Of a stretch of 64,000 nucleotides of DNA, positions 26,224-31,085 are shown piece after piece. A program made the position numbers and the translations under genes. Source of the stretch: Sneathiella sp. (lineage in GTDB: Bacteria > Pseudomonadota > Alphaproteobacteria > Sneathiellales > Sneathiellaceae). Position 1 is the stretch's first letter. Every line of letters starts with the position of its first letter. A model generated the notes under the pieces. That model did no database searches. It was given only the letters and a program-made list of their open reading frames with translations, and was not told the DNA's origin. The stretch spans positions 1 through 64,000 of the forward strand of contig NZ_NZMB01000009.1 in NCBI RefSeq assembly GCF_002694385.1. Reading direction: 5' to 3'.

Positions 26224-26964
26224 TCACTCACGAAAGGCCGCCAGCTTGTCGCGCAGTATGGCGCGGCCCTGTTGCACCCTCTTGCGGACATTGTCATTGG
26301 AAATGCCCAGCCGTTGGGCGATATCATCATATTCTTCCCCCTGCACCAGCCGGAGAATGACCGGCGCGCGGAGGCGTTTTGGCAGTTCCGTAATGGCCGC
26401 GTGAAGACGCCCGCCCAGTTCCCGGTTGAGCAGCCGCCCCTCCGGCGTCAGCTGGCGTGTTTCCAGCATGGCGAACTCAATCTCGCTGATCTCCTTCACC
26501 TTGTCATAGAGATTGCCAAGCCGCCGGTTGGCGCGATGACGGTCGATACAGATATTATGCAGGAGCCGCGCAAACCAGGCCCGCTCGTTACTGATTTGTG
26601 CCGCATGGGCGGCGTATTTCTCATAGGCGCGGATGGTGGCATCGGCAAAAGCATCCTCCGCATCGGCGGCGCTGATATTCATCCAGATCATGCTGAGGCG
26701 AAAAAGATACTCCTTATGCGTGTTCCACGCCGCCCAGAAATCTTCCGGATCGACGGGTACGCCAGAGACCTCCTCAGGGTCATCCGGTTTCCGCGCCGCT
26801 ACCGCCTCGGGCGCGGATTGCGCCGGTGCCGCCGGGATGGCCCTGATTTCAGTCTTCAGCGTTGTCAGGGACAGGCTCCGCGGGAAAGGCCCCCCGCGCA
26901 GTAGCTCTTTAGAGTTCGCAAAGATTTCAGAATTGGATGAAATATCATGCCGGAGTGGATTCAT
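26224..26964 (-). CDS. ECF-type RNA polymerase sigma factor of the reb island
   Basis: 246 residues. Region 2 (HKEYLFRLSMIWMNISAADA to NERAWFARLLHNICIDRHRA) and region 4 (LPKRLRAPVILRLVQGEEYD, then DIAQRLGISNDNVRKRVQQG helix-turn-helix) are both clear. The start at 26964 has an AAGGGGGA ribosome site; the longer frame to 27054 would add 30 unlikely residues. An N-terminal extension of about 75 residues before region 2 is unusual for ECF factors. No anti-sigma factor gene is next to it. It is divergent from the first Reb-like gene across an AT-rich region, so it probably drives reb transcription, which is inference. Confidence 0.85.
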   Translation of the reverse strand: MNPLRHDISSNSEIFANSKELLRGGPFPRSLSLTTLKTEIRAIPAAPAQSAPEAVAARKPDDPEEVSGVPVDPEDFWAAWNTHKEYLFRLSMIWMNISAADAEDAFADATIRAYEKYAAHAAQISNERAWFARLLHNICIDRHRANRRLGNLYDKVKEISEIEFAMLETRQLTPEGRLLNRELGGRLHAAITELPKRLRAPVILRLVQGEEYDDIAQRLGISNDNVRKRVQQGRAILRDKLAAFRE

Positions 26965-27250
26965 GGAGATCCCCCTTGAAGATTGGAATTTTCGGAAAAA
27001 CACAACACTGCAAGGGGAATTTGTGTGATCACCTCCCGCTTGATGCTTCATCATTTGGGCGCAAAAAGAAACTTTTAAAGTGTATTTTTGTATTTTAATT
27101 TATCTAATACGAGTGTATGCAGATACAATTAAGTAATAGAAAAAAGCAAATTTCAAATAATAATTAATAATAAATATTATTCAACAGTTGATATTATAAA
27201 TAATAAATATTATTTTTATAATACTTATAATATAAATAGAGAATTTTAAA
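26965..27250. promoter_or_regulatory. AT-rich control region between sigma factor and reb genes
   Basis: This 286-bp gap is extremely AT-rich from about 27060 onward, unlike the flanking genes. A 16-bp sequence AATAATAAATATTATT occurs twice, at 27166-27181 and 27199-27214, 33 bp apart (about three helical turns), and is itself nearly symmetrical. Several TATAAT-like hexamers follow at 27216-27237. The pattern suits both a promoter and a target for a nucleoid silencing protein. No open reading frame of note is present. Confidence 0.5.
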
Positions 27251-27682
27251 ATGGAAACCGATATGCCTGATGATCAAATTAAAAATTCTATTATTTCAAC
27301 TAATGAAATACTTCTGGGAAGCGCAAATGCAAAATCCATGGCGGCGATGTACTTGAATCTTGCCCATGCCGCCGGAATGGCCTCGCAGAACGCAGTTAGC
27401 AACCAGCAGCATCTCAATATTCTGGGGGCGGCGGCCGTCGCCACCGGCGCCAGCGGCCTGCTCAGAACCGGTTTCGCGTCGCAGGTGGAAAATCTGACCC
27501 CGGCGGAGCGGCTCGATCTGTTGCAGAAGCTGCTGGCGATGACCAATAATAACCAACCCGCCGCCAGCAATGGCGCCGCGCCAGCGGAGGATGGAAAAGC
27601 CACGGCTCCCGCCGATGCTGGAAAGGAAACCACAGATGCCGGAAAGGCACCCGCCGCCCCGGCCGCCGGTGATGCAGGATAA
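27251..27682 (+). CDS. RebB-like R-body protein, paralog 1 (divergent, Ala/Pro tail)
   Basis: 143 residues. The core (INTERVAL about 10-75) contains STNEILLGSANAKSMAAMYL and GMASQNAVSNQQHLNIL, which align with the RebB core of the downstream paralogs (SMGxLYQ...GxSMQNAVANQQ). The C-terminal 40 residues form a low-complexity Ala/Pro/Gly tail with repeated DAGK units. RebB proteins polymerise into R-bodies, coiled ribbons that unroll. This is the first gene after the AT-rich control region. An in-frame ATG at 27263 is an alternative start. Confidence 0.7.
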   Translation: METDMPDDQIKNSIISTNEILLGSANAKSMAAMYLNLAHAAGMASQNAVSNQQHLNILGAAAVATGASGLLRTGFASQVENLTPAERLDLLQKLLAMTNNNQPAASNGAAPAEDGKATAPADAGKETTDAGKAPAAPAAGDAG

Positions 27683-27760
27683 GCACGACCTTCGTTAATT
27701 TATTACAACCATAGATACCTATTTTATTTTACACTCATTCTTTCAAAATGGATTAATCAT

Positions 27761-28207
27761 ATGCCCAGCCCATCCAATTCCGGGGGCGATGCCCCATCCG
27801 GTAAAATCGAGGATTCCGCGAAATTCGCCATGGGACTTCTCTATCAATTCGCCGCTCATTCCTCAGGGCTCGCCCTTGAGAATGCGACCGCCAACTCGAA
27901 CCTGATGAACAGCGTCACCAATTCGGGCGCGGCGGCGCTGACGGCGCTTAAAAACGCCGAGGCCATCTCTATCAGTGCGCAGAAAGCAACCATCGGCGAA
28001 TCCTACAACGCCCAGACTGCCGCCATTACCCAGGCGCTCAATTCCCAGACGCAAGCCGCCGTCACCAGTCTCAACGCCGTAACGAGTGCGGGCGGCACTG
28101 CCCTCGCCGCCCAGACCAGCCAGGACATCGCCGGGATCACCGCTGATGCGGTCGCGGCCACCGCCGTCGCCATGGAAAAGATTGTCAAGCAGATGGGCGG
28201 GGCGTAA
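27761..28207 (+). CDS. RebB-like R-body protein, paralog 2 (divergent, long polar tail)
   Basis: 148 residues. The first 75 residues carry a recognisable Reb-like core (AKFAMGLLYQFAAHSSGLAL then ENATANSNLMNSVTNSGAAA). The second half is Ala/Ser/Thr/Gln-rich with regular short repeats (TQALNSQTQAAVTSLNAVTS), ending in MEKIVKQMGGA. The core departs most from the RebB pattern, so it could be an accessory or capping subunit. A GC hairpin follows the stop codon, and a 505-bp gap separates it from the next paralog. Confidence 0.6.
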   Translation: MPSPSNSGGDAPSGKIEDSAKFAMGLLYQFAAHSSGLALENATANSNLMNSVTNSGAAALTALKNAEAISISAQKATIGESYNAQTAAITQALNSQTQAAVTSLNAVTSAGGTALAAQTSQDIAGITADAVAATAVAMEKIVKQMGGA

Positions 28208-28237
28208 GCACCTTCTAATCGCCGTCGAAATGACAGG

Positions 28238-28264
28238 CGGGGCGGCACCCTGACGGCCGCCCCG
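28238..28264 (+). terminator. GC hairpin after reb paralog 2
   Basis: CGGGGCGGC (28238-28246) and GCCGCCCCG (28256-28264) form a perfect 9-bp stem with a 9-nt loop, 30 bp after the stop codon. There is no immediate T-run, so it may be a Rho-assisted stop or an RNA-stabilising element. Confidence 0.45.
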
Positions 28265-29928: not shown

Positions 29929-29966
29929 ATTCCGCCTCACCTTAACCAACTGAACAGGATAACCCC

Positions 29967-30362
29967 ATGACAGCGCAAAATAATTCGCAAAATGCGAGAT
30001 CGGTCAACAGCCAGATCACCGATGCCATTACCCAGACCAACATGATAACCCTCGGCCTTGCGCCCGCGCAATCCATCGGCACGCTGTATCAGACCACGGC
30101 ACAGGCCGTTGGAACCGCCATGCAAAATGCCGTCGCCAACCAGCAGAATATGTACAGCCTGTCGCTGGCCTCAACCACACAGAATTTGCAGTCCCTGCTC
30201 TCGCTCTCCTCGGCAACCGCCTCACGCGGCACATCGAATATCCTGAACCAGCGGCAATTGCCCATTGCGACGGCGTCATATTTCCACCCCGCACCGGCCG
30301 CTGCCGTTCATCATACAGCGGCACCAGGCCCCGCCGCCGCACATCCCGCCGCCAAGACGTGA
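29967..30362 (+). CDS. RebB-family R-body protein, paralog 6 (His/Ala/Pro tail)
   Basis: 131 residues. The N-terminal core is typical (VNSQITDAITQTNMITLGLA, SIGTLYQTTAQAVGTAMQNA, VANQQNMYSLSLAS). The usual C-terminal SGNPVAE segment is replaced by a Ser-rich stretch and a tail rich in histidine, alanine and proline (AAAVHHTAAPGPAAAHPAAK). Histidines could give pH sensitivity, which is relevant because known R-bodies extend at low pH; this is inference. Confidence 0.82.
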   Translation: MTAQNNSQNARSVNSQITDAITQTNMITLGLAPAQSIGTLYQTTAQAVGTAMQNAVANQQNMYSLSLASTTQNLQSLLSLSSATASRGTSNILNQRQLPIATASYFHPAPAAAVHHTAAPGPAAAHPAAKT

Positions 30363-30414
30363 ATGCGGAAAGATGTGACAGGCGATCGTTGAATATCACA
30401 GCAGGAGAGCGGCA

Positions 30415-30747
30415 ATGCCAACCGATTCATATGTCAACAGCCAGATAACGGGTTCTATCGCCCAGACGAACATGAGTGTGCTCGGCGATGCACCGGCGGA
30501 GGCCATGGCCATTCTGTATCAGCAGATGGCCCATACCATTGGCCTCGCGCTACAGAATGTGATCGCTCAACAGCAGCACAGCTATTCCATTCACAACGCC
30601 ATCACCATCGCCGCCTCGCGCCAGCTTCTCACCACCGATCCGGCGGCGGCCGCCAAAGCCTCGCAAGAACTTCTGGCAGGCAGCTCCATCCCCGAAAATC
30701 TCGCCGCGCTACAGGCTGTGGTCAGCGAGCTTGGCAAGAAACAGTGA
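30415..30747 (+). CDS. RebB-family R-body protein, paralog 7
   Basis: 110 residues. Core motifs are VNSQITGSIAQTNMSVLGDA, EAMAILYQQMAHTIGLALQN and VIAQQQHSYSIHNA, with the C-terminal KASQELLAGSSIPENLAALQ segment. It is more diverged than paralogs 3-5 in the central helix. AGGAGAG ribosome site. It is the last of the Reb series and is followed after 71 bp by the helix-turn-helix gene. Confidence 0.83.
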   Translation: MPTDSYVNSQITGSIAQTNMSVLGDAPAEAMAILYQQMAHTIGLALQNVIAQQQHSYSIHNAITIAASRQLLTTDPAAAAKASQELLAGSSIPENLAALQAVVSELGKKQ

Positions 30748-30818
30748 GACATCCGGCGCAGCAGCAACAGCCACGGAGGAACCCCGGGCAGATATGAGGA
30801 TCGAGAAAGGTCAGTCGG

Positions 30819-31085
30819 ATGGAACGCAGAACCCATACAGCGCAGGAAATCGGCCTGATCCTCAAGGAACTGGCCGACGGGCGCACCGTGGAGGAGGCCG
30901 CGAAACATCACGGCATTTCCCGCGCCACTCTTTATCGCTGGAAAAAACGCGCCGAGCGAACCGGCGAGCAGGAGATCAGTCGCCTCCGGCAGGTGGATGA
31001 GGAAAATCGCCGTCTGAAGCATTTATTGGCTGAAGCAGCATTGGAAATTCAGGCGCTGAAAGAACAGCTCAAATCCCGCGGATAA
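30819..31085 (+). CDS. Orphan IS3 OrfA-like helix-turn-helix / coiled-coil protein
   Basis: 88 residues. The first half (IGLILKELADGRTVEEAAKH then HGISRATLYRWKKRAER) is a transposase-type helix-turn-helix. The second half (SRLRQVDEENRRLKHLLAEA) is a leucine-zipper coiled coil resembling IS3/IS51-group OrfA proteins. There is no OrfB, no inverted repeats and no frameshift signal; recQ follows. It is therefore not an intact insertion sequence. Since it ends the reb series on the same strand, it may be a co-opted DNA-binding regulator of the R-body genes, which is inference. Confidence 0.7.
   Translation: MERRTHTAQEIGLILKELADGRTVEEAAKHHGISRATLYRWKKRAERTGEQEISRLRQVDEENRRLKHLLAEAALEIQALKEQLKSRG

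What the first reader, a model, noticed from the sequence alone, without database searches (positions are those of the whole stretch)
26224..31085. R-body (Reb) island with seven paralogs, its own sigma factor and an orphan DNA-binding gene
Seven small proteins in one 3.5-kb stretch share a RebB core (VNSQITDAVTQTN, SMGxLYQ, SMQNAVANQQ). RebB-family proteins build R-bodies, coiled ribbons that unroll and can puncture membranes; the known toxic examples are from Caedibacter, and reb genes also occur in free-living bacteria. Here five canonical paralogs are joined by two strongly divergent ones, an adjacent ECF sigma factor with no anti-sigma gene, and an IS3-OrfA-like regulator candidate. The combination suggests a self-contained, tightly switched multi-subunit R-body or related fibre.
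Basis: partly seen in the sequence, partly recalled or inferred. Interest (0 to 1): 0.9.

Follow-up and report, generated by a model that had tools for sequence, protein, structure and literature searches.

The report
R-body locus with own sigma switch
A bacterium of the genus Sneathiella carries a conserved gene cluster for R-bodies (coiled protein ribbons that can spring open), and comparison with its relatives indicates that a sigma factor encoded beside the ribbon genes switches them on from one recognisable promoter.

Summary
Seven Reb paralogs, a divergent ECF-type sigma gene and an 88-aa IS3-OrfA-like gene lie at 26224-31085. Six paralogs pass the RebB Pfam cut-off; the seventh (27761-28207) falls just below it, but its sister-genus orthologue passes. 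The order sigma|R1 R2 R3-R7 HTH is kept in every Sneathiella locus that spans it, except one complete genome without the HTH gene.

A sigma gene beside reb genes is already published (Raymann 2013 HP2.3; PA14 fecI2), so that part is not new.

What appears new is the cis-code. All 22 Sneathiella R3 promoters carry TCAC(A/G)-N16-CGTC; in the window it is the exact ECF41 consensus. TCACA-N15/16-CGTC precedes reb genes in 7/7 non-Sneathiella loci from genomes with this sigma, against 1/17 without (p=2e-5; 19 sites, 0.08 expected), and often precedes sigma itself. Ruegeria pomeroyi has a TCACG form.

In Sneathiella the sigma/R1 promoters were rewired: an AT-rich region with a nearly locus-specific palindrome, CACTTTTAAAGTG, degenerate only in the species lacking the HTH gene, which looks like a domesticated IS3 OrfA.

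Most likely a working R-body locus. Ribbons and DNA binding are untested.

The parts
26224..26964 (-). ECF-type sigma factor (reb sigma); the open frame runs to 27054, probable start ATG at 26964
   Evidence: regions 2 and 4 by Pfam; strong homologues almost only in reb+ genomes; start shared with orthologues L047 and L056, ribosome-binding site
26965..27250 (.). divergent regulatory region between sigma and R1; 27063-27258 is the lowest-GC stretch of the window (15%)
27070..27082 (.). palindrome AACTTTTAAAGTG (genus consensus CACTTTTAAAGTG), candidate operator
   Evidence: conserved at this place across Sneathiella, nearly locus-specific in 25 genomes
27251..27682 (+). R1, RebB paralog with alanine-rich C-terminal tail, fast evolving
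   Evidence: PF11747 45 bits, dN/dS 0.30
27761..28207 (+). R2, Reb paralog that lost the N-terminal QITD part; predicted long helical rod
   Evidence: PF11747 20 bits; sister-genus orthologue 51.7 bits; alignment; model; dN/dS 0.08
28624..28650 (+). predicted sigma-dependent promoter TGTCACA-N16-CGTC of the R3 operon
   Evidence: identical to the ECF41 consensus
28713..29084 (+). R3, canonical RebB paralog
   Evidence: PF11747 92.5 bits
29114..29434 (+). R4, canonical RebB paralog
   Evidence: PF11747 79 bits
29485..29844 (+). R5, canonical RebB paralog
   Evidence: PF11747 93 bits
29967..30362 (+). R6, RebB paralog with variable C-terminus
   Evidence: PF11747 76 bits, dN/dS 0.23
30415..30747 (+). 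R7, RebB paralog, the most constrained gene of the locus
   Evidence: PF11747 63 bits, dN/dS 0.04
30819..31085 (+). 88-aa HTH_Tnp_1 protein, domesticated IS3 OrfA, candidate regulator of the locus
   Evidence: Pfam E=2.8e-15; single copy, no OrfB, fixed position, purifying selection

Best explanation
A vertically kept R-body locus of Sneathiella with its own two-tier control. Upstream signals act on the AT-rich divergent region and its palindrome and give the sigma factor and R1-R2 (inferred). The sigma then directs RNA polymerase to the TCAC(A/G)-N16-CGTC promoter in front of R3 and transcribes the ribbon operon R3-R7, probably with the HTH gene at its end (promoter assignment supported by comparative data; co-transcription inferred). 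The HTH protein, a domesticated IS3 OrfA, probably feeds back on the palindrome (weakly supported). The Reb proteins would polymerise into a coiled ribbon: R3, R4, R5 and R7 as core, R2 as a helical rod subunit, R1 and R6 as variable parts (inferred from homology and constraint).
For: Seven Reb proteins under purifying selection in about 23 species. Conserved order with sigma. Promoter before R3 in 22/22 Sneathiella loci counting TCACG. Outside the genus 7/7 sigma+ loci against 1/17 sigma- loci, 19 sites against 0.08 in shuffles. Sites before sigma itself in five loci. R. pomeroyi. PA14 FecI2 is required for rebP1 expression (PMC8322103). Palindrome nearly locus-specific and degenerate in the only complete genome without the HTH gene.
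Against: No expression or binding data. The Fisher test is not corrected for kinship (four families on the sigma+ side). G131 has a strong sigma homologue but no Reb match. L072 has a site although its genome gave no sigma hit (its contig is truncated). The sister genus has the HTH gene without the palindrome. The sigma lacks the ECF41 C-terminal domain although the promoter is of ECF41 type, and whether the genome has an ECF41 sigma was not tested.
Confidence: 0.72

Rival explanations
1. The HTH gene is a passenger: a relic of an IS3 element, or a regulator of the neighbouring recQ, with no role in reb control; the palindrome is read by another, unlinked regulator.
For: It is IS3-OrfA-like and its relatives elsewhere sit in front of OrfB-like genes. 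G023 lives without it. The sister genus has it without the palindrome.
Against: dN/dS 0.13, single copy, same place across the genus; in the sister genus it follows R7 with no recQ there; palindrome and gene are lost together in G023.
Confidence: 0.35
2. The R3 promoter is real but is read by a different sigma, such as an ECF41 protein encoded elsewhere; the neighbouring sigma has other targets.
For: The element equals the ECF41 consensus and this sigma has no ECF41 C-terminal extension. G131 carries the sigma without Reb hits.
Against: The element at reb genes tracks this sigma across lineages and is absent before reb genes of genomes without it, 7/7 against 1/17; the sigma genes themselves carry it in five loci.
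Confidence: 0.13
3. The Reb proteins form some other fibre, or no longer assemble, and no R-body is made.
For: No R-body report for Sneathiella in the library; R2 departs from the consensus; no homologue of the PA14 rapA type was identified here.
Against: Canonical paralogs under strong constraint (dN/dS 0.04-0.09); reb genes gave R-bodies in PA14 and A. caulinodans (PMC8322103, PMC5527310).
Confidence: 0.13

Closest known systems
Group 2 reb synteny of Raymann et al. 2013 (PMC3583457): reb genes with sigma HP2.3 and Crp-type HP2.4
   Same: reb paralogs with an associated sigma factor
   Different: no Crp-type regulator seen at this locus; an IS3-OrfA-like gene instead; HP2.1 and HP2.2 were not identified here
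Pseudomonas aeruginosa PA14 reb cluster: rebP1P2, rebD, fecI2, rcgA, rapA (PMC8322103)
   Same: sigma factor in the cluster, shown there to be required for rebP1 expression
   Different: seven paralogs, no RcgA or RapA identified, different operon layout; the PA14 promoter could not be compared here
Rhodospirillum centenum operon RC1_1993-1999 with sigma RC1_2001 (PMC4340629)
   Same: seven R-body genes with a sigma-70 gene close by; induced in cyst development
Azorhizobium caulinodans reb operon with PraR and RebR (PMC5527310)
   Same: reb operon under dedicated local control
   Different: control there is by a repressor and a Crp/Fnr activator; the palindrome here resembles neither published site
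ECF41 sigma factors (PMC3426412)
   Same: target promoter TGTCACA-N16-CGTC
   Different: this sigma has no C-terminal regulatory extension and no carboxymuconolactone decarboxylase-type target gene beside it
IS3-family OrfA
   Same: HTH_Tnp_1 domain followed by a leucine-rich helix
   Different: no OrfB, single copy, fixed place next to R7

Membership tests
RebB / R-body protein family (PF11747) | profile match above the curated cut-off | tested here: met
   six of seven in the window; R2 through its sister-genus orthologue
RebB / R-body protein family (PF11747) | QITD, NAV and QQ signature motifs | tested here: met
   R3-R7 with minor variants, R1 partly; R2 lacks QITD
R-body producer | coiled, extendable, SDS-insoluble ribbons | not testable with these tools
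   needs electron microscopy
Group 2 reb synteny (Raymann 2013) | associated sigma factor (HP2.3) | tested here: met
   conserved divergent sigma gene; sigma subfamily nearly restricted to reb+ genomes in the sample
Group 2 reb synteny (Raymann 2013) | hypothetical proteins HP2.1 and HP2.2 | not tested
ECF41 sigma factors | promoter TGTCACA-N16-CGTC | tested here: met
   exact at 28624-28650
ECF41 sigma factors | large C-terminal regulatory extension | tested here: not met
   the protein ends right after region 4
IS3-family element | OrfA followed by an OrfB transposase, mobile and multi-copy | tested here: not met
   recQ follows, single copy, fixed position

The most novel reading that the evidence does not exclude
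A dedicated reb-sigma family reads one promoter code (TCAC(A/G)-N15/16-CGTC) wherever it occurs, so the code marks further members of the R-body regulon. In Sneathiella the ancestral sigma autoloop was replaced by an AT-rich switch under a domesticated IS3 OrfA that binds CACTTTTAAAGTG.
Probability: 0.4. Interest if true: 0.7.

Novelty: new variant of a known kind. Interest (0 to 1): 0.52.

Why it matters
How reb genes are switched on is known in few species, and no promoter code for the reb-linked sigma factor was found in the papers searched. A defined promoter makes sigma control testable with one reporter assay and lets unknown R-body genes be found by their promoters; for example, a 531-559-aa protein in the f153 loci carries one, and the copy scanned has no Pfam match. 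The locus also looks like a case of an IS3 OrfA kept as a single host regulator.

Tried and rejected
Hidden gene or RNA in the R2-R3 gap of the window: the ORFs there are not conserved and Rfam finds nothing, but 12 relatives carry a methionine aminopeptidase there. IS relic for the HTH gene: rejected as mere decay because of single copy, fixed position and dN/dS 0.13. Phage origin: no Reb hit in 50,697 phage records. Close sigma homologues on plasmids: none. The PraR site (CAAC-N5-GTTG) and the RebR site of A. caulinodans do not resemble the palindrome. Sigma-70 and terminator scans were uninformative: the promoter-like excess sits largely in the AT-rich stretch and terminators are at chance level. 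The claim that the sigma is exclusive to reb genomes was dropped after G131. AlphaFold gives one rod for R2 (pTM 0.33) and a low-confidence helical model for R5, so no fold search was made. No PDB relative of R3 by sequence.

Full report
Identity and observation. The window's genome falls in a genus whose other members have contigs matching Sneathiella records (for example G001:C14 and NZ_WTVA01000003.1, both 467,903 bases). The RebB profile PF11747 hits seven places, all in this locus and nowhere else in the genome. R3-R7 score 63-93 bits, R1 45 bits and R2 20 bits (cut-off 24). R2 is still a Reb protein: its sister-genus orthologue keeps the canonical N-terminal part and scores 51.7 bits. 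Within Sneathiella R2 lost that part, and most of the rest is predicted as one 107-residue helix (pLDDT about 90 over residues 70-140, pTM 0.33).

Conservation. Of 24 other Sneathiella genomes in the relatives search, 22 hold reb genes; the two without are 65-66% complete. The order sigma|R1 R2 R3 R4 R5 R6 R7 HTH recQ is kept in the loci that reach these points, except that G023 lacks the HTH gene. Median dN/dS: R7 0.04, R5 0.05, R4 0.055, R2 0.08, R3 0.09, HTH 0.13, sigma 0.22, R6 0.23, R1 0.30 (Nei-Gojobori, pairs with pS below 0.70). In a sister genus (G025, L068) the set is present without an adjacent recQ, and the HTH orthologue follows R7 there, so the HTH gene goes with reb rather than with recQ.

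Sigma factor. The protein has regions 2 and 4, a poorly conserved N-terminal extension and no C-terminal extension. The likely start is ATG at 26964, where L047 and L056 also begin (MNPLR) and where a strong ribosome-binding site precedes it. In the first set of genomes, homologues above 200 bits occurred in reb+ genomes (Sneathiella, G025, G267, G395, G692, G371, G053), and none of the 17 chosen reb- genomes had one (best 63 bits). A wider search found one exception, G131, with 214 bits; it was not among the genomes with a Reb match, and its sigma lies next to pyridoxal-kinase-like and aspartate-semialdehyde-dehydrogenase-like genes. In G053 the sigma lies 17 kb from the reb genes.

Promoter code. 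An alignment of Sneathiella R2-R3 gaps showed a conserved block TCACA...CGTC before R3. In the window it reads TGTCACA-N16-CGTC at 28624-28650, the published ECF41 consensus; the whole genome has three exact copies against two of the reversed control. TCACA-N16-CGTC is present before R3 in 21 of 22 Sneathiella loci; the remaining one (L048) has TCACG. The test outside the discovery set: all 7 loci of sigma+ genomes have TCACA-N15/16-CGTC within 260 nt upstream of reb genes, against 1 of 17 loci of sigma- genomes (Fisher p=2.3e-5, not corrected for kinship). There are 19 sites against 0.08 expected from shuffled upstream regions; the sigma- set has 1 against 0.13. In L121, L123, L125, L128 and L068 a site also lies before or at the start of the sigma gene, consistent with autoregulation. 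The Ruegeria pomeroyi megaplasmid reb locus (Crp/Fnr gene, sigma, rebB) has TCACG-N15-CGTC about 60 nt before three genes, two of them reb genes, and nowhere else in 18 kb; this was seen only after allowing A or G, and its sigma matches the profile weakly (44 bits).

Rewiring in Sneathiella. The sister genus has sigma-type promoters at both sigma and R1. Sneathiella lacks them. Its divergent region is 16-32% GC, in the window the lowest-GC stretch of the 64 kb (15% against 57%), and it holds the palindrome CACTTTTAAAGTG. In 25 genomes the exact palindrome is at the reb locus in 11 genomes (12 copies) and elsewhere 6 times; the reversed-pattern control gave 11. With up to 2 mismatches it is present in all Sneathiella loci holding this region except G023, which lacks the HTH gene. 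This single co-loss, with near locus-specificity, makes the HTH protein the best candidate binder, but it is one event, and the sister genus has the HTH gene without the palindrome.

HTH gene. Weaker relatives elsewhere (54-81 bits) are followed by OrfB-like genes in several cases (L175 and L179 have rve domains). The reb-linked gene is single copy, without OrfB and under purifying selection. It is best described as a domesticated IS3 OrfA.

Methionine aminopeptidase. In 12 Sneathiella genomes the R2-R3 gap holds, on the opposite strand, a second type-I methionine aminopeptidase with its metal-binding residues in place; every genome also has a stronger-scoring copy elsewhere. On a tree of R3+R4+R5+R7 it is present in one whole clade and in L060 at the base of the other (support 0.66-1.0), so it was probably ancestral and lost in the window's branch. 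R2-R7 mostly carry small residues after Met, so N-terminal processing is a plausible but untested link.

Literature. A sigma factor beside reb genes is known: HP2.3 in PMC3583457; fecI2, required for rebP1 expression, in PMC8322103; RC1_2001 near the seven-gene operon of R. centenum in PMC4340629. No paper in the library holds both Sneathiella and R-body, and none found gives a promoter for the reb sigma. The library is not complete.

Verdict. A known kind of locus (R-body genes with a sigma factor) in a genus not connected with it in the papers searched, plus a comparative result that turns 'a sigma gene lies nearby' into a specific, testable promoter assignment. Ribbon formation, toxicity, the inducing signal and HTH binding remain untested.

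Noticed in passing
L048, L049, L050, L052, L053, L054, L055, L058, L060, L063, L065, L067 (R2-R3 gap; e.g. L063:5007-5762 minus): A second, intact type-I methionine aminopeptidase lies antisense between R2 and R3 in 12 Sneathiella genomes; lost in the window's branch. Possible dedicated N-terminal processing of Reb proteins.
   Followed up: partly
L125:13664-15343 and L128:13693-15288 (minus): A 531-559-aa protein (no Pfam match for the L125 copy) in f153 reb loci has the TCACA-N15/16-CGTC element 100-160 nt upstream: a candidate new member of the R-body regulon.
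   Followed up: no
L186 (Ruegeria pomeroyi megaplasmid) 5298, 7949, 8939 plus strand: TCACG-N15-CGTC about 60 nt before three genes of the reb locus, nowhere else in 18 kb; the sigma SPO_RS21820 lies in the same locus.
   Followed up: partly
L194, L198 (G131): A strong reb-sigma homologue (214 bits) in a genome without a Reb match; it may have lost reb or have other targets.
   Followed up: partly
window 22351-26088 minus: Molybdopterin oxidoreductase (DMSO-reductase-type) and a ferredoxin-type subunit lie directly downstream of sigma; the oxidoreductase is there in the window's clade but not at the reb loci of the other clade, so they look like neighbours, not parts.
   Followed up: partly
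L126 (G053, 2525 kb): A second, isolated Reb-like gene far from the main cluster carries its own TCACA-N16-CGTC element close to its start.
   Followed up: no
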